Assembly (NCBI GenBank): GCA_947165305.1
Contig: CAMUZW010000007.1
Location: 1 to 35,415, forward strand
Origin: an uncultured Bacteroidales bacterium
GTDB taxonomy: Bacteria; Bacteroidota; Bacteroidia; Bacteroidales; UBA932
Reading direction: 5' to 3'
DNA: 35,415 bases
The notes beneath the pieces were generated by a model, which saw only the letters and a program-made list of their open reading frames with translations, was not told where the DNA came from and did no database searches. How positions within the stretch are numbered: position 1 is the first letter of the stretch; each line of letters starts with the position of its first letter. Positions 1 through 32,408 of this stretch are shown in pieces. The translations under genes and the position numbers were made by a program.

Positions 1-2083
1 CGGCCCAGAGGATGATGCCGACGTTTTTCTGCTGCCCGTAACGGATGATTTCCGGGAGGTCGATTTCGGGGATGACGGCAAAGAGGTCGTCGGCATATCT
101 GGCAGCCCATCCTTCGTCCATCAGGATATATTCGATTCCGTGGCGGGAGGCAAAATCGATATAGGCCTTGTATGTCTCCGTATTGACCCCAGGCATGAAA
201 TCCACGTCCGAGAGGGCGAACTGATTCCACCATTCCCAGGCCACCTTGCCGGGCCTGACCCAGGAGAAATCGCCGCTGGCGGGAGGGGCCAGGCGGGTGA
301 CCAGATCGTTTCCGGCGAGTTCCCGGTCTTCCCGGGCAATGCAGATCACCCTCCAGGGGAAGGTGCGCGCTTTGCCGTCACAGGAGGCGATATAGTCCTC
401 GCGGGAAGTCACGATCCATTGCAGGTTCCGCTTGCCGCCCTGCTTCTCGGTGGCGGGATACCCGGCGAAGCGGGCTTCGAATCCGCAGCCGAAGGGCTTC
501 AGGAACATCCCCGGGTAGGAAATCACGTCGGATTCGGCGATGACCATCTTGATCCCATTGTCCTCGACCAGTGCGGGCAGCACCGCCAGGGGCGGCTCTC
601 CGCCTTGGGTCGGAAGAATGGGTATGTCGTAGGGCCCCATCGCGACGTCCAGGAGCGGCTTTCCGGAAGACCAGACCGGGAACGACGCTGTCGTGTAAAG
701 ATTCTGGAAGTCATCCTGATAAGGATCCACGTTCTTATGCGTATAGGAGAAGAAGGTATTCGTTCCGGCCTCGAAACGGAAATCCGCCCGTTCGGAAACG
801 ACCTGATACGGCTTTCTGGAAGAGGCTTTCCACCGCCAGGCTACGCCGTCATTCTCCGCCCGCACTTCCAGGCTGTAACCTCGATAACGCAGTACGAGCG
901 AGTTTTTCCCCTTGACGATCCTGGCGGGTTTCCCCGCGCCGAATACCGTACCGTCGGACAGTGTCATACCAGCCGGTGAAGGCCGGACCAGGACCTTCCC
1001 GTCGCACGACACCCGGTACAGGACATTCTCGTCACCGGGGCAGACCTCGATGCAGACGCGTCCGTCCGGCGAAGTGGCCTTCTCCCAGTTCTTTGCTGAA
1101 ACGCTGTCATCAAACAGTACCTTGGCCATCAGTGGAAAATGGTCGGAAGGGTAGTGCAACGTACCGTCTGCCGTAGGGTATTTGTCCCGCCGGACCATAA
1201 AGTCCACCGCCTTGAATCCGTCAGTCATGATATGGTCCGGATGCCATTTGCTCCAAGATTTCTCATCCTTGGTATTCTGCGTGCCCCATTCTTTGTCATC
1301 GATGTTCAGGGATCCGTTCCGGTAACATTGCGTGTAGATATCCTCCCACCTTCCTTCGGACAGGTTGCGCCAGTCGCCGGATGTATGCGAGATGTTCAGG
1401 TCCCCCACGAGAATGGAAGGAACCCCTTCCGGGACGAGCGCCTCTCCGAGAAGTCTGAGCTGTTTGATATTCAGGATGTTCCCGCTGTTTCGGGGCCATT
1501 TGTCGTTTTTGTATTTCTGGGGAACGACGGTGTGGGCGTCCAGGAAGTAGAACTCCCGTCCCGTTGCCTTGGTCCGGAACCGTGCCCATACGCAGGGCTT
1601 GCAGGAATGTTTGGGTTCTCCTGCCCTGGTCCGGGGTTCATCGGGGATGCCGCCGATCCAGAAGATCCCGGTCGCGAGCGTGTCGACGAGGTCCCGCCTG
1701 TAGGCAATGGCAACATCGTATGAGATGCCTTTGACCGTGTTGGGATAGAGGATCCAGTCGTAAACGTCGTTGCGTTCAGCCACAAGCTGCCTGATATCCA
1801 GATCTCCCTTTACGCCCCAGATGCTGTCGCAGACTTCCTGTACGCCCAGGATGTCACAATCCATCTCCGCAATCATATCTGCGACAGCAGAGGCGCTGTT
1901 GCACCAGTATCTCTGTTTCCCGGCAAAGACTCCGGCCTTGCCTTTCTCGATGAAGGTTTTGCGGGAACCGCTGGTACATAGATTATAAGTCCCCACCTTG
2001 ATGGAAAGGTCGCGGGGCTTCTCATTCGCCGGGGAGAGCGAAAGAAGGGAAGCCAAGAGGGCAATTGCTATAGCACTGATCAT
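1..2083 (-). CDS. Secreted EEP (endonuclease/exonuclease/phosphatase) domain fused to N-terminal part of a GH97 glycoside hydrolase; 3' end truncated by window edge
   Basis: Manual reverse-strand translation from ATG at 2083 (overlapping the upstream TGA as ATGA) is open to the window edge. N-term MISAIAIALLASLLSLSPANEKP signal peptide; EEP motifs VGTYNL, GVQEV, DAHTV, VGDLN, HPDHI, HYPSDHFPL; then GH97-like SPDGRVCIEVCPGDENVLYRVSCDGKVLVRPSPAGMTLSDG ... PGKVAWEWWNQFALSDVDFMPGVNTETYKAYIDFASRHGIEYILMDEGWA ... IPEIDLPEIIRYGQQKNVGIILWA. Not in the supplied ORF track because it has no stop in the window. Confidence 0.9.
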   Translation of the reverse strand, partial: MISAIAIALLASLLSLSPANEKPRDLSIKVGTYNLCTSGSRKTFIEKGKAGVFAGKQRYWCNSASAVADMIAEMDCDILGVQEVCDSIWGVKGDLDIRQLVAERNDVYDWILYPNTVKGISYDVAIAYRRDLVDTLATGIFWIGGIPDEPRTRAGEPKHSCKPCVWARFRTKATGREFYFLDAHTVVPQKYKNDKWPRNSGNILNIKQLRLLGEALVPEGVPSILVGDLNISHTSGDWRNLSEGRWEDIYTQCYRNGSLNIDDKEWGTQNTKDEKSWSKWHPDHIMTDGFKAVDFMVRRDKYPTADGTLHYPSDHFPLMAKVLFDDSVSAKNWEKATSPDGRVCIEVCPGDENVLYRVSCDGKVLVRPSPAGMTLSDGTVFGAGKPARIVKGKNSLVLRYRGYSLEVRAENDGVAWRWKASSRKPYQVVSERADFRFEAGTNTFFSYTHKNVDPYQDDFQNLYTTASFPVWSSGKPLLDVAMGPYDIPILPTQGGEPPLAVLPALVEDNGIKMVIAESDVISYPGMFLKPFGCGFEARFAGYPATEKQGGKRNLQWIVTSREDYIASCDGKARTFPWRVICIAREDRELAGNDLVTRLAPPASGDFSWVRPGKVAWEWWNQFALSDVDFMPGVNTETYKAYIDFASRHGIEYILMDEGWAARYADDLFAVIPEIDLPEIIRYGQQKNVGIILWA

Positions 2084-3971: not shown

Positions 3972-5786
3972 CTATTTATCCTCGAAGTTTAAGATGACCT
4001 TCAACGGGAAGTGATCAGACGGATAGTGAAGGGATCCGTCCGCCGTCGGGAACATCTCCCGGGCGACCCTGTAGTAAGTCGGGCAGAATCCTTCAATCAG
4101 GATGTGATCCGGACGCCAGGTTCCGGATCCCCCTGTCTCGTTCTTGTTGGCATTCATCGTTCCTTTGTTCTGGACGTCTACATATTCCAGCGTTCCTTCG
4201 ATGTTCATTCGGTCATATACGTCATCCCAGCGGCTGCTGCGCAGGACTTTGTAAGCAACGGAACTTCCGTCGCAGTTCATATCTCCGACAATGATGGAGG
4301 AAGAACCTTCGGGAGCGACCAGCGGAGCCAGCCACTCGACCATTTCCTGCGCGTTGATGATCTGCGCTTCATTGGGGTTCTCGGTCGTTCCCTTGCCGGG
4401 AACGTCCAGGTGGGTGCTGAAGAAATAGAAGGTTTTCCCGCTGGCATTGTGCTTGAATTCTGCCCAGGTGCAGGATCGGTTGGAGCCGGGCCCGTCGAAG
4501 TTGACGCCCCTGACGGGCGGTTCAAACTTGGTGCCCGTGATCCAGTAGCGGCCGGAGTTGACCAGCGTCAGGGTGGACGGCTTGTAGATGATGGCGTCCG
4601 TGGTCCCGATGTCGTCGTAGGTTACGAGTCCTTCTTCGTCGTATTTCGTTGTCCTGAGGTTGTAGATGATCCATTTGTATCCGGGCAGGACATCCTTGAG
4701 GTCGTAGGTTTTCCCATCGTAATCAGGACCGAGCCCGTAAGTGATCCAATCCACCTCCTGCAGCCCCATTACATCGCAGTCCAGCCATTCGATCATCTTC
4801 CCGACAGCCTTGTAGCTGTTGGCCCAGGAGCGCTGCTTCGAGACGCTAGGGTCTTTGTCCATCATGTTCTTGCGTGCAGCTCCTGAAAGGATATTGAAGG
4901 AGCCGGCCTTGATCGAGTTCGCCATCTTCGCCTCTTCTGCGTCCAGACTTCCAGCCCCGACCGTTTCCTTGGTATTGTCATCGGCGCTTCCTCCTCCTAC
5001 CGTCATTTCTTTTCCGGCTTCGTAGGCAATCGTATCGAAGCGATGAAGGGTGGCGGCGGCCAGCTTGATGCCGGAGGGATGGACCTTTACGGTCATCGCC
5101 GTTCCGTCAGTCGCGCGGATAACGGCCTGAAATCCTTTGGAATAGTTTCCGCCGGGCAGGGAGAAGAGGATGTCCCGGCCAGCACCCGAAAGGGCGAGCC
5201 CCTCCCCGAATGAATATTTTAGCGATCCTGATGCACCGGCCTCTGCTGTAATGCTGCCGTCACAGGTTCCGTCCTTGTCCATTCCCAGTCTGAAAGGACC
5301 GCTGATCTTCTCGCTGCCGGGAGAGGTGATTTCCATCTCTTTCAGGGTGGCAGAACCTTTCAGTGACAGTTGGATGATGGCTGCGGGAGTTCGAAGCGTT
5401 ACGCCGTCTTCCAGTCTGGCCGTATGCCCGGCCAGCGGAATTGCGCCCCGGCTTACGGATCCTTCCACGTATTGCTGAAGGGCGGGGAACTCAATCCTGC
5501 CCTGCTGGGTGGATCCGGGGTATACGACATTGTAGGCAGATGCTTCCGCCGGTTTCTGCGTCAGCTTGAAGGCCGCGGTGGCCGTACCGGCCTGATCCTT
5601 TGACAGGGCTTCGGAGCGGATGCCGTTGATGCTGATAACGTCGCCGGCCGCCCAAAGGGTCTTCAAGGCCGGATTTTCAATGCTGGCAGTCAATGAAACA
5701 GACTTGTCTCCTGCCGGCTCCTTCCCGCAGGCCAGGAGAAAGGACAGGAGTGCAATCGTCAAGTACATTTTATTCAACTTCGTCAT
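3972..5786 (-). CDS. Lipoprotein with fimbrillin-like N-terminal module and intact EEP domain
   Basis: MTKLNKMYLTIALLSFLLACGKE lipobox; C-terminal EEP motifs AGSFNI, GLQEV, FSTHLD, VGDMNCD, RPDHI, HYPSDHFPL. Confidence 0.88.
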   Translation of the reverse strand: MTKLNKMYLTIALLSFLLACGKEPAGDKSVSLTASIENPALKTLWAAGDVISINGIRSEALSKDQAGTATAAFKLTQKPAEASAYNVVYPGSTQQGRIEFPALQQYVEGSVSRGAIPLAGHTARLEDGVTLRTPAAIIQLSLKGSATLKEMEITSPGSEKISGPFRLGMDKDGTCDGSITAEAGASGSLKYSFGEGLALSGAGRDILFSLPGGNYSKGFQAVIRATDGTAMTVKVHPSGIKLAAATLHRFDTIAYEAGKEMTVGGGSADDNTKETVGAGSLDAEEAKMANSIKAGSFNILSGAARKNMMDKDPSVSKQRSWANSYKAVGKMIEWLDCDVMGLQEVDWITYGLGPDYDGKTYDLKDVLPGYKWIIYNLRTTKYDEEGLVTYDDIGTTDAIIYKPSTLTLVNSGRYWITGTKFEPPVRGVNFDGPGSNRSCTWAEFKHNASGKTFYFFSTHLDVPGKGTTENPNEAQIINAQEMVEWLAPLVAPEGSSSIIVGDMNCDGSSVAYKVLRSSRWDDVYDRMNIEGTLEYVDVQNKGTMNANKNETGGSGTWRPDHILIEGFCPTYYRVAREMFPTADGSLHYPSDHFPLKVILNFEDK

Positions 5787-6781
5787 TAGTATTGTAATTC
5801 AGCGATGACTGGGAAATGCAGGGCAGGGTAGTGCAATGTTCCGTCGGCCGTCCGATATTTCTTTCTGAGGACGGAGTAGGATTTTACGGAGAAGCCATCT
5901 TCCAGGATGTGATCCGGACGGCCTCCCTGCAACTTCTTCTCATCCAGTGAATTCATTGTGTCTATTGTCTTTCCGTCTGCTTCGCCCAGGGATCCTTCTT
6001 CCTTCAGCCGGTCATAGACATCAAACCATCGCGAAGATGTGAGGGCTTTGTATCCGGGATAGGACGGGGCGTTACGGGCGTTGAGTGTGATGACGGAGGG
6101 CGTCCCTTTAGGGGCGATGTCCGCATTCATATATTCTAAGATATTCCGGCAGTTGGCGACGTTGATCTCGTGGTAGGTGACCTTGCCGGTCTTGGAGTTC
6201 TGGGAGGGACCGTTGACGCCGGCGCTGGTGAAGACCAACTCCTTCTGCGCGTCTTTGTCAAAGAGCCGGACCCACATCATAGAGGCATGTTTGCCTCCAT
6301 ATTTGAATTCCTTGGCACGCCCGGGCTTGTCGAATGTGCCGCTGAGCCAGTAGATTCCATAGTCTCTGAGTTCGAACCGGGAGGACCGCCAGAGGATGCC
6401 TGTCCCGTTCGACATTTTTCCTTCCAGAGGATATGAAGGATTCTTGTTGCTCAGGACAAGCCATTCATAGTCTCCGCCTTTCTCTCGGAGGACAGTGATC
6501 AGCGGTTTGACGCCGTCCAGCCTGCCGGCTATGGTGTCGCAAACGTCCTGGATGCCCATAATGTCGCAGTCGGCCTCCAGGATGGCATCTGCCACGGCTG
6601 AGACGCTATGACACCACATCCGCTCCGGGGACATCTTGCCGTTTTTGACCTGTGTCTGTCGGTTGAACGAATTGGTGATATCGTATGTGCCGACGCGGAG
6701 TGTCGTCTTCCCTTTCTGGGGAGTTGCCGCCACTGCGCAGACCGAGGCTAGGATGGCGCATATTGTCAATAACCTTCTCAT
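5786..6781 (-). CDS. Secreted EEP-fold protein with degenerate catalytic motifs (putative pseudoenzyme)
   Basis: Likely start is MRRLLTICAILASVCAVAA at 6781 (ATGA overlap with upstream stop at 6778), not the longer ORF start at 6868. Aligns with neighbouring EEP paralogs but motifs read GTYDI, GIQDV, TSAGVN, ITLNAR, HYPALHFPV. Confidence 0.85.
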   Translation of the reverse strand: MRRLLTICAILASVCAVAATPQKGKTTLRVGTYDITNSFNRQTQVKNGKMSPERMWCHSVSAVADAILEADCDIMGIQDVCDTIAGRLDGVKPLITVLREKGGDYEWLVLSNKNPSYPLEGKMSNGTGILWRSSRFELRDYGIYWLSGTFDKPGRAKEFKYGGKHASMMWVRLFDKDAQKELVFTSAGVNGPSQNSKTGKVTYHEINVANCRNILEYMNADIAPKGTPSVITLNARNAPSYPGYKALTSSRWFDVYDRLKEEGSLGEADGKTIDTMNSLDEKKLQGGRPDHILEDGFSVKSYSVLRKKYRTADGTLHYPALHFPVIAELQY

Positions 6782-8535
6782 AGCTGCAAATCTGCCCGGA
6801 TGGGATAATGGTCTGATATATAGTTGATATGCAGGTATTTCCGTGTAACAACCTTGAAATCTGTGCATTTTTTGAACCCCTTGTACCAGATATAGTCGAT
6901 GTTGCCGGTCCAGGACTGCCCGAAGCCGTTGAAAGAATATCTGTCATCTGAGGACACAGCCGTTTCCCGGGCATTTTTCATTTCACCGGACAACCGGACC
7001 AGGGCCGGATTGTCCTCCGTCATATTCAGGTCTCCGACCAGTACGCAGGGGAGTTTCCCCTTGTTGATGACGGACAGGGTGTCCAGAATCAGGTCCAGGC
7101 CCTTTGTCCTCGCTTCCTGTCCTTTGTGGTCCAGGTGCGTGGTGACAAAAATGAACTCTTTCTTGCTGTCCTTCATCCGGAGCCGGGCCCAGACGGCCGT
7201 CCGCTTGACGGCCCCGTCCCAACCCAGTGAGGGAACGGACGGTGTTTCGCTCAGGTGAAAGCCGCCCCAGTCCAGCAGGTCGACGGAATTGCAGTTGTAG
7301 TAGAGGCTCGCGCATTCCTTCTTGCCGTCCGGTTCACGGAAGATGCCCACGTGCTTGTAATCCGGGCAGCGGCGGTCCAGATATGCGATCTGGATGTCGG
7401 TGATTTCCTGTGTGCCGAATACGTCCGGTTGCACGTCTTCCAGCATGGCCGGAATAGCTCTTCTTCGCATGGCCCAGCCATTCTCCAAGTCGACGTTATT
7501 GTTGTGGTAACGGACGTTGAAGGACATTGTGCGGACCGTTTTCTTCGCCTTGGGCGGAGTGGGGAGCCCGCTCGGGGAATAATCGATGAAAACTACGTGA
7601 CTGGTCAGCGGCAGATGGTCGGAAGGGTAGTGCAGGGTCCCGTCATCCGTGGCGAAACGGTTGCGGTCGATGACATAGTCCAGCGGACGGAACCCCTGGA
7701 CCATAATGTGGTCCGGATACCATTTGGTCAGCCGGCTCTCGTTTTTGACATTCTGCGTTCCCCACATCCTGGCGTCTTCGCTCATCCGGTCAGAGCGCAG
7801 GAAGTAGAGTTTAGTGTCCATAAACGGCACTTGTGCCAGGGTATTCCAGGTCCTTCCGTTGATGTCGACATTCATGTCGCCGACCAGGATGGCGGGGACA
7901 TCATCCGGCAGATTCTCTTCGCACCATTTCCGGAGCTGCTGGGCGTTGTATTTGTTCCCGTCATCATTGTGGGTCCCGTCAGGCAGCTTCTGAGGCACAA
8001 GCAGATGGGTGGAGATGAAGTAGAACTCCTTCCCCGACGCCTTGTGCAGGAACCGTCCCCAGACGGCGGGACGCTTCCACCCTTTGTATATGCCGGGCGC
8101 CGTCTCCGGCTTGTCCAGGACTCCTCCCATCCAGAAGATCCCGCTCTCCAGGCAGTCAAAGACGGACGGCTTGTAACCGATGGCGTCGTCGAAAGAAATG
8201 GTATTTTTCGGAGAGTTGGGATACAGGATCCATCGGTAGTCACCGCCCTTGGCCGCCACAATCCCGCGGATGTTGCGGGGACCGTTCCAGATACTGTCGC
8301 AGATCTCCTGCAGGCCGATGATGTCGCAGTCCAGATGAACGATCATGTCTCCGACGGCACCGGCGCTGTGGCACCAGTACCGCTGCGGGGATACGGTCGT
8401 ATCTTTCTGGAGAATATCGCGACGGGATCCGGAGGTGTACAGGTTGTAAGTGCCCACCTTGAACCCGGGCGCCTCCCCGGCCGTTGCCGGCAGGGAAAGC
8501 GCCAGGAAACAAAGTGCGATAAGGATTTTTTTCAT
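6778..8535 (-). CDS. Secreted tandem double-EEP domain protein
   Basis: Start MKKILIALCFLALSLPATAG at 8535 (TAATG overlap). EEP1: GTYNLYTSGSR, GLQEI, ISTHL, VGDMNVD, YPDHI, HYPSDHLPL. EEP2: MSFNVRYHNNN, GTQEI, VTTHLDH, VGDLNMTEDN, NIDYI, YISDHYPI. Confidence 0.9.
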   Translation of the reverse strand: MKKILIALCFLALSLPATAGEAPGFKVGTYNLYTSGSRRDILQKDTTVSPQRYWCHSAGAVGDMIVHLDCDIIGLQEICDSIWNGPRNIRGIVAAKGGDYRWILYPNSPKNTISFDDAIGYKPSVFDCLESGIFWMGGVLDKPETAPGIYKGWKRPAVWGRFLHKASGKEFYFISTHLLVPQKLPDGTHNDDGNKYNAQQLRKWCEENLPDDVPAILVGDMNVDINGRTWNTLAQVPFMDTKLYFLRSDRMSEDARMWGTQNVKNESRLTKWYPDHIMVQGFRPLDYVIDRNRFATDDGTLHYPSDHLPLTSHVVFIDYSPSGLPTPPKAKKTVRTMSFNVRYHNNNVDLENGWAMRRRAIPAMLEDVQPDVFGTQEITDIQIAYLDRRCPDYKHVGIFREPDGKKECASLYYNCNSVDLLDWGGFHLSETPSVPSLGWDGAVKRTAVWARLRMKDSKKEFIFVTTHLDHKGQEARTKGLDLILDTLSVINKGKLPCVLVGDLNMTEDNPALVRLSGEMKNARETAVSSDDRYSFNGFGQSWTGNIDYIWYKGFKKCTDFKVVTRKYLHINYISDHYPIRADLQL

Positions 8536-10661
8536 TACTGATTCTGATAAGAGCCCGGCCACCAGCCCTCCGCTCCTCTCGGCGTGCCTGCAGCGTCCGT
8601 ATTGAATACCCCGGCTTCCACAAGCCAGTTGTAGAAGTCTTCACCGTAGTGGTTGCTTCCATCGGGGACGTAGGCTTTGAGTGCGGCTTCAACCTCTGCG
8701 GCCGTAGCTGTCTGGAAGCCTTCCAGGGATGCCGGACCGCTCCAGGGCAGCAACCCGTTCTCGGAGAGTGCAATCGTGCTTCCGAATATGGAAGTGGCCG
8801 TGACGCCGGATATGTCGGTCGCGGTGCCGGTCCCCTTGAAGGTGACTGTAGGCGTCTTCGACAGGACATTGTGCCCGTAGGTGGTGACAATGGTATTTGC
8901 ACCTGAAGCGACGGCCTTGGCAATGGAACTGCCCTCGTCAACGACGATGAGGTTGTTGACGATCATATTCAATTTCTCATCCTTCTTGTAGAATCCGGCG
9001 AATCCGTTGGTGGTTCCAACCTTTGCGGCTGCCATCGTGCAGTTGGCCAGGAGCATCGGGACATTTGCGCGGATACTTCCGTTTGAGGCGGCATTGTTTC
9101 CCATAGGGTTGACCATCGTGCAGTTGTAGATCAGCAATGCATCACCTGCCGATGAGAAGATATCCGGCCCGTTGGTGGCGCAGGCATTTTCGTCAAAAGT
9201 GCAGTTGGCAATGAAAAGGGTGTTGCCCGTCTTTTTCTGGAGGATGGCGCCGCCGTTTCCGATCTTGTCGGGGTTATTGCCCCTGAACAGGCAGTTCAGG
9301 ATCCGCGTGATTCCTGCAGAATAGATGGCGATGGCACCACCTCCGGTTTTGGCGGTCTTGTTCCCGATGAAGGAGCAGTAGGAGATGTTGGCCGCTGATG
9401 TCCCGCCGAGATAGATGGCGCCGCCAGTCTGCTCATTGGTGGCGGAAGTCGTCGCATTCCCCGAGAAGATGCAGTGCTGGATGTCAAAGTGTCCGGCCGT
9501 CAGGTTGAGCGCTCCGCCGGCGCCGTTATGTTTCGCATCGGCGAAAGTGATTCCTTTCAGGGTCAGGTTGACATTGGATGAAGCGCAGGCGAGGATACAT
9601 TCATCTGCCGCACTGGTCTTGAAGATGGTCTTCCCTTCGACACCGGAAACGAAAAGTATCGTCGGTGTGTCATATTTGACGGAGATGGCGCTTCCTTCTG
9701 CTCCGGCAAGGTCATATTCCCCTTCACCGACGAAGATGGTATGACCGTGGAGGGCTGCCCCCTGGGCAGGATCGGACAGATAGGTGATGAGCTGTGCCTG
9801 GTCGCCGGCATTCTCCCAGGATGTTCCGTCCTTGGTCCCGCTGCCGGTGACAGTAATGTAAAAGTTCCCCAGCGCTTCCATATGGCCGTTTACCGGGGTG
9901 TCGATGCAAAGGACGTTTCCGGCCGGGATCGTGGCGGGCTTGTCAGAGGTTGCCTCCCCTTTCCAGAGATTGTTGTCTCCCAGTTTGAAGTAGAGGCCCG
10001 GCAGGCTGACGCCCGGGAGTGTCGCCAGGAAATAGGTCCCGCTTCCGTCAAGGTTGACCTCAATCTCGGGCTGGGTCCCTTCGGTAGTAAAATCGGAGCA
10101 TCCGGCATCCGTGGAAATGGATCCGACGATGTTCATTTTATCATCTGTCGAGGAGAAGATGGCGCGGGTGAGGGTCTCATCATCTATGGTAAACCGGATC
10201 ATACCGACGGCGCTCTTGAAGCGGCCGAAATTCTTTTCCTCCCAGGTCGTATGGGAGGCGATGACCGCACAGTCCTCGAACTTCCCCGTCTGGCTGGCGG
10301 GGAGATGCAGGGTCAGCCTTCCGTCCGCTTCCACCTTTGCGGTGATGGTGGAAGGATAGACGGCGTAATATTCGTCGGCTTCTTCAACCGTTGCCTTGAA
10401 AAGCACTTTGCCATCCACGATCTGGGCGGGGACGATACAACTGCCGCCCTCCCACAGGATCGAAACCAGGTCGCCTTCGTTCCAGGTGACATTCCAGTCT
10501 TCGCCGAGCGTCGTCCGGGTGACAATGTCAGTGTCGGCGGAGAAGGTGACCTCCACGCCTTTCTGCGCAGGCTCGGGGTCCTTGCTGTCCTGTTCTACTT
10601 TTGCACAGGATGCTGCGGCCAGGAGGACCGCCAGCAGAATGATATATCTTTTCATATTCAT
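8535..10661 (-). CDS. Lipoprotein with fimbrillin-like N-terminus and right-handed parallel beta-helix
   Basis: MNMKRYIILLAVLLAAASCAKVEQDSKDPE lipobox; fimbrillin-like TRTTLGEDWNVTWNEGDLVSILWEGG; beta-helix coils HCIFSGNATTS..GGAIYLGGTSAANISYCSFIGNKTAKTGGGAIAIYSAGITRILNCLFRGN. Confidence 0.82.
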   Translation of the reverse strand: MNMKRYIILLAVLLAAASCAKVEQDSKDPEPAQKGVEVTFSADTDIVTRTTLGEDWNVTWNEGDLVSILWEGGSCIVPAQIVDGKVLFKATVEEADEYYAVYPSTITAKVEADGRLTLHLPASQTGKFEDCAVIASHTTWEEKNFGRFKSAVGMIRFTIDDETLTRAIFSSTDDKMNIVGSISTDAGCSDFTTEGTQPEIEVNLDGSGTYFLATLPGVSLPGLYFKLGDNNLWKGEATSDKPATIPAGNVLCIDTPVNGHMEALGNFYITVTGSGTKDGTSWENAGDQAQLITYLSDPAQGAALHGHTIFVGEGEYDLAGAEGSAISVKYDTPTILFVSGVEGKTIFKTSAADECILACASSNVNLTLKGITFADAKHNGAGGALNLTAGHFDIQHCIFSGNATTSATNEQTGGAIYLGGTSAANISYCSFIGNKTAKTGGGAIAIYSAGITRILNCLFRGNNPDKIGNGGAILQKKTGNTLFIANCTFDENACATNGPDIFSSAGDALLIYNCTMVNPMGNNAASNGSIRANVPMLLANCTMAAAKVGTTNGFAGFYKKDEKLNMIVNNLIVVDEGSSIAKAVASGANTIVTTYGHNVLSKTPTVTFKGTGTATDISGVTATSIFGSTIALSENGLLPWSGPASLEGFQTATAAEVEAALKAYVPDGSNHYGEDFYNWLVEAGVFNTDAAGTPRGAEGWWPGSYQNQ

Positions 10662-13027
10662 TACCAGTTGTATTCAATGGGATTCATAGGATCGATGCCG
10701 CTGTCTCCGTCGAAGGGTGTTGCCGGCGGTTCTACGGTGTTGTAGCGGATTCCGATGTAGTTCCAAGCCGTCGGGAAAGACCCCGAGGCAGGATAGACGA
10801 TGGAGGGATCCAGATATGAGACGTTGGAACCCGTCTGCAGTCCTGCATCCGGTATGATCCGGAGATAAACCTTCGGCTGTCCGAGCAGGGTATAGGCCGG
10901 CAGCGGGACATTGACCGGCTTGTAGCCGGCCGTCTGCCACGGTTGTGTAATCGGACTGGTCTGGCAGACCTCCGGCAGACTGTATCTGGCAACGGGGGTC
11001 CAGCTTTCTCCGTTCAGGGAATACTCAACCCTCCAGAAGCGAGGCCCCTGCAGATAGGTTGCGACACCGTTGACGCTCTGGGTCGACGGATAGAAATAGT
11101 TCATGGAGGAGATCTGAAGGCTCATCCTGGAACTGGAGATTCCCTCAGTCGAGAAGACCAGCATCGTGTACATCGGTTCGCCTCCCCTTACCGTCAGGTT
11201 GGTGGCCCAGGCCGAACCGGCGTCTGTCGGGATTTCACCATATCCTTTCTCATTGATTGCCCCGGCGTATTCACTGTTGTATCCGCTCCATCCCGGGCTC
11301 ATCCAGTCGGATCCGTCCGCGAGGATGACGCCGACACCGCTCTCGTGGCCGATATGGCTGTTTCCGGCAGGACCGAGGTAAGAGTAGTCGCGGTACTTGA
11401 TGATCGGCAGCTTGCCGGCACGACCGTCCGTGTAGGAGTCGGGGTAGACATAACTGTACTCGAAGTAGGCGTTTTCGTCACCGTCCGTGGCGTAGTACTT
11501 CTCGAGGTTCTTGTCCTTGATGTAGCGCCATTCGGCGATGATGCCGGAGAATGTCGATTCGGTCATCGTCTGCGCCATCCCGAAATCTTCCTTGCAGGTA
11601 TGGCGGAGCTGGTAGCGTCCGATGTTGCCCCAGGTGTCGGAGTCGGTGGAAGCGTTGTCCTGGTAGCTGAACCGCGGGTACAGTTCGTGGACGACGACAC
11701 CGCTCATATTGCCGCTTCCTTCCGGCAGACGGGAACCGTCGCGACGGTAAGGGCAGGTGGTGTTGGTGTACAGGTACATCGATCCGCCGCAGATGTCGTG
11801 GAGGAGGATGCCGAATTTATTGACCTTGTCGGCGCCTGTTTCCTTGGTGAATTGCTCGCTGATCGGAGTGAGGGGGCCCTTGCGGACTGGGAATTCACAG
11901 TCCTTGATGGTGACATAGGTGAAGATGTCTTCATCCGTCAGGCCGCCGATGTATTTCTCCTTGAGCGGAAGGCCTTCACGGCCGAGCGGCTTGCTGGACA
12001 GGGCCATATTCCCCTTGAATCCGGTTACATAGTAGTAGACCGGATCCACGGAGGCGTCAATGACGGCAGCGCGGAAGATCTTGGTTCCGCGCATTCCGAG
12101 CTTGACCTTGTCTCCCTGCTTGAAGATGTTGTCGGCTGCGGTCTTGGCATCAATCCGGATGCCCATGGAGCCGTCCGTCGCTTCCAGGTAAATGGTCCTG
12201 AGACAGCCCTCGTAGTCGATGACCGTCACACCGGTCTGGGGGTTGTCACCGCAGTTGCCGTTCTCCTTGTCGCTGACGACGATGCCTTCGATGGTAATGT
12301 CTTCCTCGATGTCCGTACCTTCCTCGGTTGCCAGCGCACAGAAATCCTGCAGGCTGTATTCGTTGCCGGCAGTATCTCCGCTGGAGAGCTGGCTGATCAT
12401 CAGCGGGACGCTAATGACTTCCCCGAAGGCGTCGGTGTGAGTTACAGTAATGCTGCCGCGGCGGATGCTGCTTCCGGGGTTGGCTTTAAATGAGAAGGTC
12501 AATTTCGAATCCTTGACGGAGACGTCGTTGATCCAGGCCTCATTGCCGTCGTTGTCCCACTTGAGGACCAGTTCCTGATCTTGCAGGTTGGTCTCGAGCG
12601 AGACGGTTTCCGTTCCGGGAGCAGAGCCTTTGACGGTGATGACGTTGTTCTCTGCGGAAAGAACGGGGGAAACCGTGCCTTTCTGCCGGACCGTCAGGGT
12701 GTCATAGTGATGGGTCTCATCGATTCCGATGACGACTTTCGCCAGGCGGGGGAGGGATGTATTGGCCGTATAGGTCATCTGGAATCCCTCCTTGCCGGCC
12801 GGAGCCGATTCCGGGACGGTCAGCCAGCCGGCTTCCGTCCGGACCGTATAGTCCCGGGTGGCGATGACGGCAATATGAACTTCTCCCTTTTCGGCCTCGA
12901 GATCGCACACCTTTTCGGGGTATCCGAGTCCGGACCCTTCATTGATGGTGCGCTCGTTGATATCTTTTGAACAGGCGATGGCCGCTATCATAGCGGCGCA
13001 AAGCCCTATATTCCGTAAAATTTGCAT
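10661..13027 (-). CDS. BACON/DUF5689-type lipoprotein (putative surface ligand-binding protein)
   Basis: Likely start MQILRNIGLCAAMIAAIACSKD at about 13027, two nt after the upstream stop; BACON-like VCDLEAEKGEVHIAVIATRDYTVRTEAGWLTVPESAP; DUF5689-like EDITIEGIVVSDKENGNCGDNPQ...IYLEATDGSMGIRIDA..FKQGDKVKLGMRGTKI. Confidence 0.72.
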   Translation of the reverse strand: MQILRNIGLCAAMIAAIACSKDINERTINEGSGLGYPEKVCDLEAEKGEVHIAVIATRDYTVRTEAGWLTVPESAPAGKEGFQMTYTANTSLPRLAKVVIGIDETHHYDTLTVRQKGTVSPVLSAENNVITVKGSAPGTETVSLETNLQDQELVLKWDNDGNEAWINDVSVKDSKLTFSFKANPGSSIRRGSITVTHTDAFGEVISVPLMISQLSSGDTAGNEYSLQDFCALATEEGTDIEEDITIEGIVVSDKENGNCGDNPQTGVTVIDYEGCLRTIYLEATDGSMGIRIDAKTAADNIFKQGDKVKLGMRGTKIFRAAVIDASVDPVYYYVTGFKGNMALSSKPLGREGLPLKEKYIGGLTDEDIFTYVTIKDCEFPVRKGPLTPISEQFTKETGADKVNKFGILLHDICGGSMYLYTNTTCPYRRDGSRLPEGSGNMSGVVVHELYPRFSYQDNASTDSDTWGNIGRYQLRHTCKEDFGMAQTMTESTFSGIIAEWRYIKDKNLEKYYATDGDENAYFEYSYVYPDSYTDGRAGKLPIIKYRDYSYLGPAGNSHIGHESGVGVILADGSDWMSPGWSGYNSEYAGAINEKGYGEIPTDAGSAWATNLTVRGGEPMYTMLVFSTEGISSSRMSLQISSMNYFYPSTQSVNGVATYLQGPRFWRVEYSLNGESWTPVARYSLPEVCQTSPITQPWQTAGYKPVNVPLPAYTLLGQPKVYLRIIPDAGLQTGSNVSYLDPSIVYPASGSFPTAWNYIGIRYNTVEPPATPFDGDSGIDPMNPIEYNW

Positions 13028-13029
13028 AA

Positions 13030-15372
13030 TTATTGAACTTTTACGCATCTTACATTTCCTGCCCATCTTCTCTGGGGATAGTTTATGTTGATCTCGCCGG
13101 TGTTGACATTGGTCCTGTACCACAGACGGTAAGATCCTTGATAATCTACATTTTCCTGCGGAGTGGCAGACCAGATCCAGCCGTCGCCCATATTGCACAT
13201 CTCACTGGCAGTCGAGGCCAGGCGGCGGTAGACACCACCCGGCGCGAACAGCATAGATTTTCCGTCGTCATCCGTGATGGAAATGCCGACCAGTTCGACA
13301 AAGGTGGATCCCGAAAGCCGTTTGGCAACGATGCTCAGCACATCGTTCCCGGCAACGGTCCAGCCGTTCGGGCACGGGTTGCCGTCGGCGGTAGGGGATG
13401 CCCAGAGGTCGTTGTCCTGAGGGTCCCTCCAGTCCTGTCTTCCGCTGTTGGCGCTTCCCCAGTAGTAGGTCGTCGGATTGGCGTGCGCTACTTCCGGTGC
13501 GACGCCGTACTGGGCGGTTACAAAGCGGATGGAGTTCGGATAAACCTTCTTATGATTGGCGTTGCCGGTGGACCTCGTCTCATCGGTGGGAGGGAAGGGA
13601 TCCTTTCGGCCCCACTGGTAGTGCATGCCGATCGAGGCGTTGGAGTGGTCATCGGCTTCGGCCTCGATGGCCCCGAGGTTGCGGTCCATCAGGTAGAAGG
13701 CCCCGAATCTGCGTGACTCGACCGGCTGGGCAGGCGCCCAGATCAGGTAGCTCCAGCGGATGACTCCGTCCTGATTCATCACGGCGATATGCGCGTCGCC
13801 GGGGTGTTCCGCTTCTTTGCGGAAATAGAGTTTCCCGGCCTTGGCATCAATGGCCAGATACGTCAGGACATTCGGCTCGGTCTGCCAGAGATATCCGCAG
13901 CGGACGATATCGTCGGCCGGGACGGTCCCGTCCGGACGGCGGATATCGATGCTGTACATCTTTTCGGCCAAATCCTCGACCAGATAGCAGTTGGCCCATT
14001 TCTGCCCGGCGGACAGGTCTTCCGCACCGGTCGGCAGGGTCAGGGAGATCTCCTCGAGGGGAACGATTTCGTGCACACGGCCCACCGTGGTGCTCTCGGC
14101 CGTGATGGCTCCGCTCCATTCCGTCGAAGATGCATGGACGGTCAGGCGGTCAATGTCATTGGCCGGGATGGTCAGGTAAAGTTCTGTCGGCAGGCTGACG
14201 CCTTCTTCAGGAAGCAGGACCTTGATTTCCAGGGAGCTGCTTGACAGCGGGGTGTAAACGGGGCGCTCAGCACTCATATCAATGCTTCCGTCTCCCGCGA
14301 GCGGGATGCCGGAGGAGATGCTCAGGGTCTGCAACGTGCCGGTCCCGGCAATCTTGACGCGAAGAATCGAGCAGGCGCTGTTGAACTGAATGTTCTCTCC
14401 TTCTTTGTTGCCTACGAGGACCATCAGGTCAGAGGATTTTGACAGGGAAGTCTTGAACTCCTGTTCGTCGGGCAGGGTGATATAGACCTTTCCGTTGCTC
14501 CATCGGGAGACGTAATCTTCGGGATAGACACCGCCGAGGATACCGCTCTTGACGGCATCTCCGTTCACAAGCAGGGTGGCCGATTCTGACGAGAGATCTC
14601 CGATCGATGCGGAGATGGTCGAACTGCCGTCAGCGTCGAGCAGGACAAACTGGTCATCTTCCAAGAACTGGATACCGGTCCCGTCAATAGGGGAGACACG
14701 CGCTTCGAGTTCAATGGGGTCGCTGACGGACTGGTTGACTTTGAAGCTGGCCTTGACAGGGGTGTCCCAGCGTGCCAGCGGGAAAGAAATCTGGACTTCG
14801 GCGCTGCGAGGGGCTCCTGTGTTGTTCTCGTCAACCCGGAAAGATACCCGCTTGGGGGAGACTTCGATATCGTGGATCCACGGTTCTTCGTCTTCGCTGG
14901 CATAGATGACGGTGTCAATGGCACCGGAGACGGTGTCTTCATCAAGGTTCGTTCCTGACATAATCCTTGCCTTGGCCGCCGATCTGAGGACGTCGACGGA
15001 TTCCTTGACAAAACTGTAGTTGCCGGCATCCGTGGTTCCCTTTTCCTGAGAGATATAAAGTTCTCTGCTCCCGTGGCTGTTGGAAACATACAGCGTGACG
15101 CCGCGGGATACTCCTGGATTCAGGTCGGTGGTGACCTTCAGTTCGGCATTTCCTTCTCCGGAAGTGGCTGAAAGCGTGACCCAGTCAACATTCTTTCCCA
15201 GTTCTGCCTTCCAGGGGCCGTCACTGTATACAAGGACATAGTAGGTGTCGCCCGAGTTCTTGAATCTCATTTCAGCACGGCTGAGGGCGAGGGGAAGGTC
15301 GAGTTCGTAGCGCTGCGTACACGCAGTCACTGCAAGCAGCATAATGGCTGCCCAATAAATAATCCTTTTCAT
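13030..15372 (-). CDS. Lipoprotein with BACON-like, fimbrillin-like and C-terminal FISUMP-like domains
   Basis: Likely start MKRIIYWAAIMLLAVTACTQ at 15372; BACON-like GPWKAELGKNVDWVTLSATSGEGNAELKVTT; C-term WANCYLVEDL..YLMDRNLGAIEAE..MHYQWGRKDPFPP..PCPNGWTVAG..WIWSATPQ..RWAGNVRCVKVQ. Confidence 0.72.
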   Translation of the reverse strand: MKRIIYWAAIMLLAVTACTQRYELDLPLALSRAEMRFKNSGDTYYVLVYSDGPWKAELGKNVDWVTLSATSGEGNAELKVTTDLNPGVSRGVTLYVSNSHGSRELYISQEKGTTDAGNYSFVKESVDVLRSAAKARIMSGTNLDEDTVSGAIDTVIYASEDEEPWIHDIEVSPKRVSFRVDENNTGAPRSAEVQISFPLARWDTPVKASFKVNQSVSDPIELEARVSPIDGTGIQFLEDDQFVLLDADGSSTISASIGDLSSESATLLVNGDAVKSGILGGVYPEDYVSRWSNGKVYITLPDEQEFKTSLSKSSDLMVLVGNKEGENIQFNSACSILRVKIAGTGTLQTLSISSGIPLAGDGSIDMSAERPVYTPLSSSSLEIKVLLPEEGVSLPTELYLTIPANDIDRLTVHASSTEWSGAITAESTTVGRVHEIVPLEEISLTLPTGAEDLSAGQKWANCYLVEDLAEKMYSIDIRRPDGTVPADDIVRCGYLWQTEPNVLTYLAIDAKAGKLYFRKEAEHPGDAHIAVMNQDGVIRWSYLIWAPAQPVESRRFGAFYLMDRNLGAIEAEADDHSNASIGMHYQWGRKDPFPPTDETRSTGNANHKKVYPNSIRFVTAQYGVAPEVAHANPTTYYWGSANSGRQDWRDPQDNDLWASPTADGNPCPNGWTVAGNDVLSIVAKRLSGSTFVELVGISITDDDGKSMLFAPGGVYRRLASTASEMCNMGDGWIWSATPQENVDYQGSYRLWYRTNVNTGEININYPQRRWAGNVRCVKVQ

Positions 15373-15373
15373 A

Positions 15374-16927
15374 TTACAAGCCGTACGCATTATATTCTTT
15401 GTTGTCAAGTGCATACCCGGAGTTCACGACCTGCTCGGCGGGAATGGGAAGATACCTGTGGCAGCGCTGTGCATAGGTGGGGATTCCTCTTTTGTCCATC
15501 TCCGGCTCCCAGTACTCCTTGATGGCATCGTACCAGATGCCCCAGCGGACGAGGTCGAATTTGCGCTGGAACTCGCCGAAGAGTTCGCGGGCCCTTTCGT
15601 CGCGTACTTCTTGTCTGGCCCTGTTCCAGTTGCTGACCGAATAAGGAGACAGCGCAGCACGGGTACGGACCTGATTGAGGTACTTTTCAAAGGCTTCTTT
15701 ATCCTGTTTCTCGCAATAGCATTCCGCAAGCATCAGGAGGACGTCCGCATAGCGGAATATGGGGTAGTTGTTGGAGTCGGCAGTAGTGCTCATCTCCGGA
15801 CACCAGAACTTGGGTCCCATCCAGGGATCCGTGATGCCGGTATTGAAGGGTTTGCCATCGTAGCGTCGGCCCTGGTTGATGTCCACGCGGAGATCTTTTC
15901 CGTCATCAGGCTGAAGGGCAGCGTGGAAGTAAGAGGTGGGCCGATTGCAGGTTCCTACTTTGGCGGTGGTCCCCAGGAAGGGGATAGAAAGGCCGTCGTA
16001 TGTCTTTGTTCCGGAGGTGTAGGGGGGCATACAGTTCTGGGCCAGGTTGCCGGCGTAGGACAGGGTCCCTTCCGTGTAGGTGTGCCGGATCTCGAAGATT
16101 CTCTCCGGAGTGTCCTTCACGCTGAACAGCAGGTCACTCAGCGGGTATTGGGATAGGTCGCCATAGACGGGGACCAGTCTTTCCAAAGCATCGATGGCCA
16201 CCTGATACCAGTCGGTGTCGCCGGATGTGTCGGTGCCTGCATTCCACAGGGCCATCTTGCCGATGAGCGTCATGCCCATCGCCCAGCCGGCGCGGCCTTT
16301 TTCCACGCCGTCATAAGTACGGGTCTGCTTGAGGGGACCCGTATAGGAATCGCCATTGTAGCTGTAGCAGTCCTGGAGTTCCTTGATCAGATCGGCGCGG
16401 ATTCTAACGGCGCTCATCCTTCCGAGATGGGCGGCACGCTCCATCGTCGCCTGATCCACTACGTCATCCGTATAGAAAGGGACATCGCCGAAGACGGAAG
16501 TCAGCAGATAATACCAGAATGCGCGCATCGTCTTTGCTTCGGCGACCAGGGCCAGCCGGGTCTCGTCGGGAATGGTCGTAGAGGCTTCAATGCCGGCAAT
16601 GGCGGCGTTGCAGTACATCACGGCCTTGTACCCCGTGCTCCATATCCTCTTGGAAACGCTGCATTGGGAGGGATTGATGTCCATAATGGCGTTGACATCA
16701 GACACGGACGGGACATATACGAGGTCTGTCGTTCCTTCGACGTGGGTGAAGAACGCGGTGACATATACTGTCCTGAGCCCCTCGTAGCACGAGTTGACGG
16801 CAGAGATACATTGGGCTTCGGTCTTATAGTAGTTGCTCCTGTCGACGAAGGAAGTGGGGTCTTCGTCCAGGAAGTTGCAAGCGGCCAGCACGAGGGCCGC
16901 AAGCGAAAGTATCAATGATTTTTTCAT
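15374..16927 (-). CDS. susD-like: SusD/RagB family outer-membrane lipoprotein
   Basis: MKKSLILSLAALVLAACNFLDEDPTSFVDRSNYYKTEAQCISAVNSCYEGLR; C-terminal RYADVLLMLAECYCE, RARELFGEFQRKFDLVRWG; directly downstream of SusC. Confidence 0.95.
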   Translation of the reverse strand: MKKSLILSLAALVLAACNFLDEDPTSFVDRSNYYKTEAQCISAVNSCYEGLRTVYVTAFFTHVEGTTDLVYVPSVSDVNAIMDINPSQCSVSKRIWSTGYKAVMYCNAAIAGIEASTTIPDETRLALVAEAKTMRAFWYYLLTSVFGDVPFYTDDVVDQATMERAAHLGRMSAVRIRADLIKELQDCYSYNGDSYTGPLKQTRTYDGVEKGRAGWAMGMTLIGKMALWNAGTDTSGDTDWYQVAIDALERLVPVYGDLSQYPLSDLLFSVKDTPERIFEIRHTYTEGTLSYAGNLAQNCMPPYTSGTKTYDGLSIPFLGTTAKVGTCNRPTSYFHAALQPDDGKDLRVDINQGRRYDGKPFNTGITDPWMGPKFWCPEMSTTADSNNYPIFRYADVLLMLAECYCEKQDKEAFEKYLNQVRTRAALSPYSVSNWNRARQEVRDERARELFGEFQRKFDLVRWGIWYDAIKEYWEPEMDKRGIPTYAQRCHRYLPIPAEQVVNSGYALDNKEYNAYGL

Positions 16928-16932
16928 ACGCC

Positions 16933-19900
16933 CTAGAATTTAATTTGAACCATACCCACCACTTTCCGGGGTCTCGGATAGGCTCCGATATCGGCCCTGC
17001 GGATGGTGGATTCCTGATCACTGACCTTGCTGGAGACATCCGGGTCGAAGCCGTTGTAACGGGTCCAGAGGTATAGGTTGTCAGCGCTGACGCCGACCGA
17101 GAGGCTCTTGATCCATTTGGCCTTCTTGAAATTGAACAGATAAGACAGGCTGATGTTCTTGAGCCGGAGATAGGATGCATCGTGCACCATAAAGTCGCTG
17201 GGAAGCATGCTGCTGCCGCTGGCGCCGCCGGCCGGGAAGTTGGATTCCGGGTTGCGGTAGGGATTCCAGGCATTCAGCATATAGCGGTACTGGTTGGTGC
17301 AGTAGGTCCCTGCCATATAGAATTCAGAGTAGTTGTAGATGCTTCCGCCAACGGAGTAGGCAAGATAGATTCCCAGTTTGAACCCATAGATATGGAAGGT
17401 GTTCTGCAGACCTCCATAGACGACCGGGTCGGCATCTCCCAGATAAGCGAGATCCTGGTTGTCCAGAATACCGTCGTGGTTCTGGTCTACATATTTGGGA
17501 CGGCCGCACTTGTACGGTTTCGCATAGTAGTCGACATATTGGTGCGTAATCTCGTTCTCGGCGACTTCCTCTGCATTGTGCCATACACCGCCATATTGGA
17601 AACCCCAGAGCGAGTTCAGCGGATAACCTACCCTGTAGCCGTACATCATATAGCCCTTCGGGTCGCTCATCGCGACAACCTCCGCCTCGCTCCCGATGTC
17701 TTCGACCATCTGCTTGTTGTGCGAGATGGTGAATTCGGTGGTCCAGGAGAAGTTCTTCTTGACGATGTTGTGGGTCTCCAGGGTGAACTCTATACCTTTG
17801 TTGGAAGTGCGGCCGAGATTCTGGGTAAAGCTGCTGTAACCGCTCTGCTGTGCTTTCTGTACGCTCAGGAGCAGGTCTTTCGTATAGGAAAGATAGCCTT
17901 CTGCCGTCAGTTTCAGGCGTCCGTCGAGGACAGACATGTCGAGGGCGAGGTTGTAAAGGTCGGTCTTCTCCCAGGTAAGGTCCGGACTGTCCAGACGTGA
18001 AGGATAGTAGTAGGTGGCCTGCCCGTCTCCGATCAGGTATCCTGAAGTGGAACTGCTCAGTTTCTGCAGCGAGCTGTAGGGGGAGATGGCGTCGTTACCC
18101 GTCCGTCCGGCGCTGAGCCTGAGGGAGAGATCCTGGAAGACCCGGGTCCGTTTGAGCCAGGGCTCGTTGGCCAGATTCCACTTGAGCGCGCCGGAAGGGA
18201 AGAATCCCCACTTGTGGTTGGCTGCGAAGTTGGATGAAGCATCCTCACGGCCGGTAAGCGTGATATAGTAACGCTGCTTGTAGTTGTAATTGATTCGTCC
18301 CATAAAGGACATCCTTCGGATAACCTGGTTGTTGGATGTGATGGTGTAGTTGTCCTTGTCGCCGATGGCGTTGAGGTCGTTCCATTTTAGGTCATCGACC
18401 AACATTCCTTTTCCGATTACCTGCTGATAGTCGGTTGTCTTGTAGTACATGGACATACCGGCCATTACGTCAAGGTGGTGGGCTTTGGCGAAATCTTTCT
18501 TGTAAGTGATCGTGTTGTCGGTGTTAAGCTGCGTCTGGTTGGAGTCCTGACGCTGGACCTCTCCGCCTGTCCCTGCCATTCTCCTGACCGGCAGGGTGCC
18601 GGGGAGATACCGGTACAGGTGCGTGTCATACTTGTAATAGGTATTCCTGCTCACGATGGTGAGGCCCTTTACCGGCGTGAAGGTCAAGCCGATCGTCTGG
18701 GTGTTGGAGAAGCTCTTCCGTTGGTGGACCGACTGCTTGATGGTGATGAAGGGATTGTTGAAAGGCGTGCCCTTGCCGTAATTGTAGAGATCGTTGATTT
18801 CACTTTCCACATCCAGGGCCGGCGAAATATAGACGGCACCTCCGTACACACTGGTTCCGCCGATGCTGGTCTTGTTGTTATTGTTGAGCCTGTACAGGAT
18901 GTTGGTATTGTAGTCAATTTTGAACCACTTGTTGAATTGGTGCCCCAGATTGAGACGTCCGATCAGTCGCTTGGCACCGGAATCCAGAATGATACCCTCG
19001 TCATCGGAAAATGAGACGGAAGCGAAGTAATTGGTTTTCTTCGTTTTCCCGCTGACGGAGAGGCTGTATTCCTGGAACGGCGCCGTACGTGTGACGGCAT
19101 CGAGCCAATCGGTCCCCTCACCCAGCGCTTCCGGATCCGCGTATTTTGCGGCATAGCCCGGAGTGGCCGGATAGGTCAGGCCGTCCTTGCTGGCCCGGGC
19201 GAAGTCTGTCCGGTCATTGTTGTACATAGCGAACTCCGTCGCGTTCATGATATCCAGCTTGCGGGCGAGCTGGGAGAATCCCAGTTTGACGGTGGCCGTC
19301 ACGCTCGGCCTGGCTGAGCCGGAGTTGCCGGCCTTGGTCGTGACGATGATGACGCCGTTGGCGCCCTGTGAACCGTAAATGGCCGTCGATGACGCATCCT
19401 TGAGGATGGAGATGGATTCGATGTCGGCCGAGTTGAGGTCGCTCAGATCCTGGACGGCATTCATCACACCGTCCACGACGATCAGCGGTTCGTTGCCGGC
19501 TGTGATGGAACGGGATCCGCGGATACGGATGGAAGTGCCCTCCGTCGGGTCGCCGGATACGCTCATGATGTCGGCGCCTGCAATGCGGCCCTGCAGCGCC
19601 TGATCTACGGAAAGGGTGGGGGAACTCTCCACATCCTGCATTTTAACGGTGGCGACGGATCCGGTCAGGTCTTGTTTCTTCTGCTCACCGAATCCGATGA
19701 CCACCACCTCATCAAGATAGGTAGCGTCTTCCTCCATCACAGTGTCGATAACAGTCTGATTACCGACTCTTATCTTTACAGTCTTGTATCCGAGACATTC
19801 AAAGACCAGTACTGCCTCCTTGGAGGGTACTCTCAGTGAAAATTTCCCGGATCCGTCAGTTACGGCTCCGGCAGAGGAACCCTCTACAGAAACCGTTGCG

Positions 19901-23547: not shown

Positions 23548-23553
23548 GGGTCT

Positions 23554-24810: not shown

Positions 24811-24813
24811 GGC

Positions 24814-26373: not shown

Positions 26374-26382
26374 ATCTTTATA

Positions 26383-29632: not shown

Positions 29633-29636
29633 ATCG

Positions 29637-31037: not shown

Positions 31038-31049
31038 CGTTGCGTGCCG

Positions 31050-32390: not shown

Positions 32391-32408
32391 ATATGTTTAT
32401 TTTTTTTG

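What the first reader, a model, noticed from the sequence alone, without database searches (positions are those of the whole stretch)
1..2083. EEP-GH97 fusion missed by the ORF track
Reverse-strand translation from 2083 to the window edge is open and joins a motif-complete EEP domain (to about 1100) directly to a GH97-like N-terminal beta-sandwich and the start of its catalytic barrel (from about 1075). The four EEP-bearing proteins here are neighbours, but only this one is covalently joined to a glycosidase. That suggests phosphodiester/phosphoester cleavage and alpha-glycoside hydrolysis on the same molecule. The supplied ORF list contains only antisense or out-of-frame fragments in this interval.
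Basis: partly seen in the sequence, partly recalled or inferred. Interest (0 to 1): 0.78.

Follow-up and report, generated by a model that had tools for sequence, protein, structure and literature searches.

The report
Phosphoesterase–alpha-galactosidase fusion in rumen glycan locus
Rumen Bacteroidales carry a single protein that joins a phosphate-ester-cutting domain to an alpha-galactosidase, inside a gene cluster for taking up complex sugars; this suggests that they feed on a still unidentified phosphate-bearing, galactose-decorated glycan.

Summary
Window 2-2083 (minus) is one open frame, cut by the contig edge, that joins a motif-complete EEP domain (Exo_endo_phos) to a GH97 N-domain and the start of the GH97 barrel. 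It is no assembly join: 13 other Bacteroidales genomes, mostly from rumen, carry the same fusion at full length (959-1013 aa) in a syntenic locus. In the window's own genome the C-terminal tail and next genes lie on the end of contig C4. Both halves keep every catalytic residue tested and are under purifying selection. The GH97 half belongs to the retaining alpha-galactosidase branch; the EEP half is nearest, distantly, to Bacteroides EEP proteins, including one deposited as mannosyl-6-phosphatase. The locus is a SusC/SusD locus with four EEP proteins (five domains, one degenerate). In relatives the same GH97 is free, or fused instead to GH3 or a GDSL esterase. The EEP fusion arose once and was seen in one genus only. 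Best reading: a two-active-site, probably periplasmic enzyme taking phosphate/phosphodiester and alpha-galactose off one glycan. The architecture seems undescribed in the open papers searched; substrate and activities are untested. New variant of a known kind.

The parts
2..2083 (-). EEP-GH97 fusion, N-terminal 694 aa; C-terminal part lies beyond the contig edge (last 51-52 aa on contig C4 of the same genome)
   Evidence: open frame; Pfam; C4 tail
2020..2083 (-). probable N-terminal signal sequence, no lipobox found by simple pattern
   Evidence: sequence and pattern search; inference, no signal-peptide predictor run
1106..2026 (-). EEP (Exo_endo_phos) domain; window residues N34, E83, H184, D228, N230, D283, S313, D314, H315
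   Evidence: Pfam PF03372; alignments
1076..1105 (-). short linker of about 10 residues
   Evidence: between EEP end and GH97_N start
281..1075 (-). GH97 N-terminal domain
   Evidence: Pfam PF14508, 112 bits
2..271 (-). start of GH97 catalytic barrel (first 95 of 275 model positions)
   Evidence: Pfam PF10566, 104 bits
2080..3969 (-). 629-aa lipoprotein: domains resembling Bacteroides fimbrillin-like 'cell adhesion' proteins plus GLUG beta-helix, probable surface binding protein
   Evidence: Pfam GLUG; AlphaFold model pLDDT 84.8; Foldseek 3t2l, 3ufi, 4k4k, 5nf4 and IgA1 proteases; lipobox pattern
3972..5786 (-). 604-aa lipoprotein with C-terminal EEP domain
   Evidence: Pfam 24.1 bits, just under cut-off 24.5; alignment; lipobox pattern
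5786..6868 (-). EEP-fold protein with degenerate active site, conserved in relatives (conserved region aligns from about residue 30, so the true start may be internal)
   Evidence: alignment, EEP tree clade 100/99, synteny
6778..8535 (-). 585-aa tandem EEP-EEP protein
   Evidence: two Exo_endo_phos stretches
8535..10661 (-). 708-aa lipoprotein of unknown fold, conserved in the locus
   Evidence: no Pfam match; synteny
10661..13066 (-). BACON + DUF5689 lipoprotein
   Evidence: Pfam; lipobox pattern
13030..15414 (-). BACON-domain lipoprotein
   Evidence: Pfam; lipobox pattern
15374..16927 (-). SusD-like lipoprotein
   Evidence: Pfam PF07980
16933..20019 (-). SusC/RagA-type TonB-dependent transporter
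   Evidence: TIGR04056, 805 bits
20297..21892 (-). DUF6377 protein, possible regulator of the locus
   Evidence: Pfam; 40-41% identity to DUF6377 proteins inside the related loci L034 and L035

Best explanation
A bifunctional, probably periplasmic enzyme of a SusC/SusD polysaccharide utilisation locus. Proposed pathway: SusC/SusD and the surface lipoproteins capture a phosphate-bearing, alpha-galactosylated glycan; the lipid-anchored EEP protein makes first cuts; imported fragments meet the EEP-GH97 enzyme, whose EEP site (divalent metal) hydrolyses a phosphomono- or phosphodiester while its GH97 site (calcium, retaining double displacement) releases alpha-galactose from the same fragment; GDSL esterase, GH35 and other enzymes finish the job. 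Shown by sequence: both domains in one chain, catalytic residues conserved, gene linkage. Inferred: both activities, location, a shared substrate, the order of steps.
For: Both Pfam domains above cut-off; full set EEP + GH97_N + GH97 + GH97_C in the orthologue L014. EEP residues invariant in 14 of 14, GH97 nucleophile and two glutamates in 13 of 13 that reach the sites; pairwise dN/dS 0.06-0.17 in both halves. Retaining alpha-galactosidases 3a24 and 5e1q are the nearest solved structures by far (562 and 559 bits against 143 for the next); the D-to-G position of 5e1q aligns with the conserved D; (K/M)(I/V)DF is the retaining signature (PMC2670981). EEP profile nearest 4c1r 'mannosyl-6-phosphatase'. 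GH97 fused in three different ways, or free beside EEP genes, in related loci: EEP, GH3, GDSL and GH97 therefore probably share a substrate. Single origin of the EEP fusion (100/99).
Against: No biochemical test. The EEP match to 4c1r is distant (49.5 bits) and EEP specificities vary widely; phosphate is not shown in any substrate. The GH97 score is below the equivalog cut-off of the retaining alpha-galactosidase model (729 against 800). The predicted structure of the fusion was poor (pLDDT 50.8), so domain arrangement is unknown. DUF5689 also occurs in a protein needed for DNA uptake in Riemerella (PMC8459023).
Confidence: 0.55

Rival explanations
1. Convenience fusion: two genes of one locus were joined by loss of the intergenic region; the two domains work on different bonds or even different molecules, and joining gives only co-expression and co-localisation.
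For: GH97 is free in L034 and L035, fused to GH3 in L032 and to GDSL in L055, so no particular partner is required; neighbouring genes overlap or nearly touch. In L055 an EEP-EEP gene lies directly upstream of GH97-GDSL, and its first EEP is sister to the fusion EEPs, a simple route to the fusion.
Against: Fusion kept in 14 genomes with about a 10-residue linker and both active sites conserved.
Confidence: 0.25
2. The EEP domains are nucleases and the locus scavenges nucleic acids or phosphate; the alpha-galactosidase is incidental or acts on sugar-decorated nucleic acids.
For: Neighbouring EEP proteins match ExeM/NucH and MnuA nuclease models weakly; a DUF5689 protein is needed for natural transformation in Riemerella (PMC8459023).
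Against: Those matches are far below cut-off (26-32 against 300; 25-27 against 185), and the fusion's EEP alone matches no NCBIfam model. Related loci are rich in glycoside hydrolases (GH3, GH35, GH39, GH10, GH30, GH78) and a GDSL esterase.
Confidence: 0.1
3. The target is membrane lipid: galactolipids (alpha-galactose on digalactosyl glycerol) and phospholipids or sphingolipids, with EEP as a phospholipase-C-like enzyme and the GDSL protein as acyl esterase.
For: Alpha-galactosidase, beta-galactosidase-like GH35, GDSL esterase and EEP genes together; such lipids are plentiful in forage (general knowledge).
Against: SusC/SusD, BACON and several polysaccharide-type hydrolases point to soluble glycans; no lipase of the phospholipid type or sphingomyelinase match was found.
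Confidence: 0.07
4. Assembly or gene-calling artefact.
For: The gene is cut by a contig edge in the window's genome.
Against: Thirteen other genomes carry the same join at full length without stops.
Confidence: 0.01

Closest known systems
Retaining GH97 alpha-galactosidase of Bacteroides thetaiotaomicron (BtGH97b; PDB 3a24, 5e1q)
   Same: N-domain, barrel and C-domain; (K/M)(I/V)DF nucleophile motif; two conserved active-site glutamates
   Different: The known protein as crystallised has no EEP domain; here about 330 residues of EEP precede it
Bacteroides EEP protein deposited as mannosyl-6-phosphatase (PDB 4c1r) and the related 3mpr, 3g6s
   Same: EEP fold by sequence profile, catalytic motifs
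   Different: Only distant similarity (49.5 bits by profile); no glycosidase attached; substrate of the present domain unknown
CapGH97, a calcium-activated alpha-galactosidase of a gut Bacteroidaceae arabinoxylan cluster (PMC8810776)
   Same: GH97 alpha-galactosidase in a herbivore-gut carbohydrate cluster
   Different: The passages read report no EEP domain; its cluster has GH43 and GH10, here EEP genes dominate
RgAgaSK, alpha-galactosidase fused to a sucrose kinase (PMC7688924; abstract only)
   Same: Precedent for an alpha-galactosidase joined to a phosphate-handling enzyme
   Different: Kinase adds phosphate; here a hydrolase of the EEP fold is joined; different families

Membership tests
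EEP / Exo_endo_phos superfamily | Pfam PF03372 above cut-off | tested here: met
   49.3 bits against 24.5
EEP / Exo_endo_phos superfamily | conserved metal-binding and catalytic residues (N, E, H, D, N, D, SDH) | tested here: met
   invariant in 14 of 14 fusion proteins
EEP / Exo_endo_phos superfamily | metal-dependent phosphoester hydrolysis | not testable with these tools
   needs assay
GH97, retaining alpha-galactosidase subfamily | GH97_N, catalytic and GH97_C domains | tested here: met
   all three in orthologue L014; window copy is cut after the first 95 barrel positions
GH97, retaining alpha-galactosidase subfamily | (K/M)(I/V)DF nucleophile motif and the two conserved glutamates | tested here: met
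   nucleophile D and both glutamates in 13 of 13 orthologues that cover the sites; motif from PMC2670981; the window copy ends before these sites
GH97, retaining alpha-galactosidase subfamily | NCBIfam equivalog NF053844 above its cut-off of 800 | tested here: not met
   729 bits: same subfamily, equivalog status not shown
GH97, retaining alpha-galactosidase subfamily | alpha-galactosidase activity, calcium dependence | not testable with these tools
   needs assay
Polysaccharide utilisation locus | tandem SusC and SusD genes with linked degradative enzymes | tested here: met
   15374-20019; linked enzymes on C4
Polysaccharide utilisation locus | induction by a defined glycan | not testable with these tools
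   needs expression data
ExeM/NucH extracellular nuclease | NCBIfam NF033681 above its cut-off | tested here: not met
   fusion EEP: no match; neighbours 26-32 bits against 300
Mannosyl-6-phosphatase (4c1r) group | same substrate specificity | not testable with these tools
   only distant profile similarity

The most novel reading that the evidence does not exclude
The fusion marks a dedicated uptake and degradation system for a phosphodiester-linked, alpha-galactosylated glycan (for instance a teichoic-acid-like, capsular, protozoal or fungal phosphoglycan) in the rumen, in which one enzyme removes both the phosphate linkage and the galactose next to it.
Probability: 0.3. Interest if true: 0.65.

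Novelty: new variant of a known kind. Interest (0 to 1): 0.45.

Why it matters
Phosphate-bearing glycans are poorly covered by known gut and rumen degradation systems. A conserved protein that ties a phosphoesterase-type domain to an alpha-galactosidase, in a locus with five EEP domains, gives a concrete handle for finding such a glycan and for assigning function to EEP proteins in SusC/SusD loci, which automatic annotation tends to name as nucleases.

Tried and rejected
Assembly artefact: rejected by 13 orthologous fusions. Inverting alpha-glucosidase type GH97: rejected, since the KIDF motif is present and the retaining alpha-galactosidases are far closer. Nuclease family membership: cut-offs not met. 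AlphaFold model of the full fusion: too poor to use (12 sequences, pLDDT 50.8), so no fold search was run on it. Paper searches for a described EEP-GH97 fusion or an EEP-linked polysaccharide locus: nothing relevant in the open library; subscription papers are not covered, so absence of precedent is weak evidence. Some first tries failed for technical reasons. Substrate from neighbouring hydrolases: GH3 (near beta-glucosidase 9ul7 and SN243), GH35, GH39, GH10 and GH30 do not agree on one known glycan.

Full report
Observation. The reverse frame from 2083 to the window's left edge is open. The window is the whole of contig C7 of its genome (35,415 bases), so the gene is cut by the contig edge. 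Pfam places Exo_endo_phos at residues 58-315, GH97_N at 337-601 and the start of the GH97 barrel at 605-694, all above curated cut-offs. The frame is absent from a closed ORF list because it has no stop inside the window; with open ends it is listed.

Not an artefact. One scan of 85,462 genomes with short peptide patterns gave 11 loci, all encoding the same fusion, from rumen, goat and roe deer samples where the record title says so. In samples of 394 genomes of the order and 398 of the phylum only the window's own genome matched at the stricter limits used; in 399 genomes of the family, five did over the whole query, all of the same genus. These are samples at stated E-value limits, so rare fusions elsewhere are not excluded. 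All 13 other copies are complete, 959-1013 aa, without stops.

The missing part. A search of the window's own genome with the C-terminal half of the nearest orthologue (L017) finds its last 51 residues at 84% identity at the very end of contig C4, minus strand (C4:38225-38377 of 38,378). Next to it on C4 follow GDSL esterase, GH35, a sodium/dicarboxylate-type symporter and a FAD oxidoreductase, the same kinds of genes as in the related loci. C7 and C4 therefore most likely adjoin, with about 220 residues of the gene in the gap. This is inference from gene order and similarity; no read crosses the gap here.

The two catalytic halves. GH97: the nearest solved structures are 3a24 and 5e1q, retaining alpha-galactosidase, at 562 and 559 bits, against 143 or less for the alpha-glucosidase branch. 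The retaining signature (K/M)(I/V)DF was described for this subfamily in PMC2670981; its aspartate, and two glutamates spaced as in that family, are present in all 13 orthologues that reach these sites. The window copy stops before them. The NCBIfam equivalog for retaining alpha-galactosidase is missed (729 against 800), so I claim the subfamily, not the equivalog. EEP: N, E, H, D, N, D and SDH are invariant in all 14. The profile's best match among solved structures is 4c1r, deposited as mannosyl-6-phosphatase, at 49.5 bits, then 3mpr and 3g6s. That is a distant relation; it suggests sugar-phosphate chemistry but does not show it. Pairwise dN/dS (simple Nei-Gojobori counts) is 0.06-0.17 in both halves for six pairs; some pairs have high synonymous divergence, so the values are rough.

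Neighbourhood. From 20019 down to 2 on the minus strand the window has SusC, SusD, BACON and BACON-DUF5689 lipoproteins, a 708-aa lipoprotein, a tandem EEP-EEP protein, an EEP protein with a degenerate active site, a lipoprotein with a C-terminal EEP, a 629-aa lipoprotein with fimbrillin-like and GLUG parts, and the fusion. The order is largely kept in the related loci, which often carry an additional 270-aa gene. Downstream genes in relatives include GDSL esterase, FAD oxidoreductase, GH35, GH39, GH3 and GH10. By simple pattern the fusion, the EEP-EEP protein and the degenerate EEP lack a lipobox, while the 604-aa EEP protein, the 629-, 708-, 801- and 794-aa proteins and SusD have one. This supports, but does not prove, a periplasmic place for the fusion.

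How the fusion arose. In the GH97 tree the EEP fusions are one clade (100/99). Outside it lie, in turn, a GH97 fused to GH3 (L032), a GH97 fused to a GDSL esterase (L055) and free GH97 genes in EEP-bearing loci (L034, L035). In the EEP tree the fusion EEPs are one clade, sister to the first EEP of the EEP-EEP protein of L055 (100/99). In L055 that EEP-EEP gene lies directly before GH97-GDSL. Loss of the second EEP and the stop between them would make the fusion; this route is my inference. That the same GH97 has been joined to EEP, GH3 and GDSL in different relatives is the best evidence that these activities serve one substrate.

Mechanism. My best reading is a two-active-site enzyme that removes a phosphate ester or phosphodiester (EEP, divalent metal) and an alpha-galactose (GH97, calcium, retaining) from the same imported fragment. 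Domain identity is well supported; activities, shared substrate and location are inferred. The rivals are a convenience fusion, nucleic-acid scavenging and lipid degradation. Nuclease models are missed by a wide margin, and the wealth of glycosidases argues against nucleic acids, although DUF5689 also occurs in a DNA-uptake protein of Riemerella (PMC8459023).

Novelty. No paper found in the searched open library describes this architecture. CapGH97, a calcium-activated alpha-galactosidase from a gut Bacteroidaceae cluster (PMC8810776), and the alpha-galactosidase/sucrose-kinase AgaSK (PMC7688924, abstract) are the nearest described cases found. Both halves are known families and multi-domain enzymes are common in such loci, so this is a new variant of a known kind. 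Interest comes from the link it suggests between EEP proteins and galactose-bearing phosphoglycans.

Noticed in passing
window 5786-6868 (-); L020:4536-5519; L034:12150-13121: EEP-fold protein with lost catalytic residues (N to D, QE to QD, GDMN to TLNA, SDH to ALH) kept in syntenic position across relatives: a conserved pseudoenzyme, perhaps a binding protein.
   Followed up: partly
L032:5426-9727 (-): GH3-GH97 fusion (1433 aa) in a relative's EEP-bearing locus.
   Followed up: partly
L055:7356-10382 (+): GH97-GDSL esterase fusion (1008 aa) directly after an EEP-EEP gene.
   Followed up: partly
L020:12886-16617 (+); L035:10535-12187 (+): A domain of about 530-550 aa without Pfam or PDB sequence match, fused to GH3 in one relative and free in others.
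   Followed up: partly
L038:893-2050 (-); C4:34441-35658 (-): Sodium/dicarboxylate-family symporter, weakly nearest the Ser/Thr transporter model SstT (73 bits against cut-off 308), conserved in the locus; unusual company for a glycan locus.
   Followed up: no
G000:C4:27414-29414 (+), L067: A free GH97 paralogue (45% identity) lies on the opposite strand of the contig that carries the fusion's tail.
   Followed up: no
window 20297-33698 (-): Upstream of the locus lie a DUF6377 protein, a class Ic tRNA synthetase, and a division/cell-wall cluster (FtsZ, FtsA, Mur ligases, MurG-like, FtsW-like, MraY-like).
   Followed up: no
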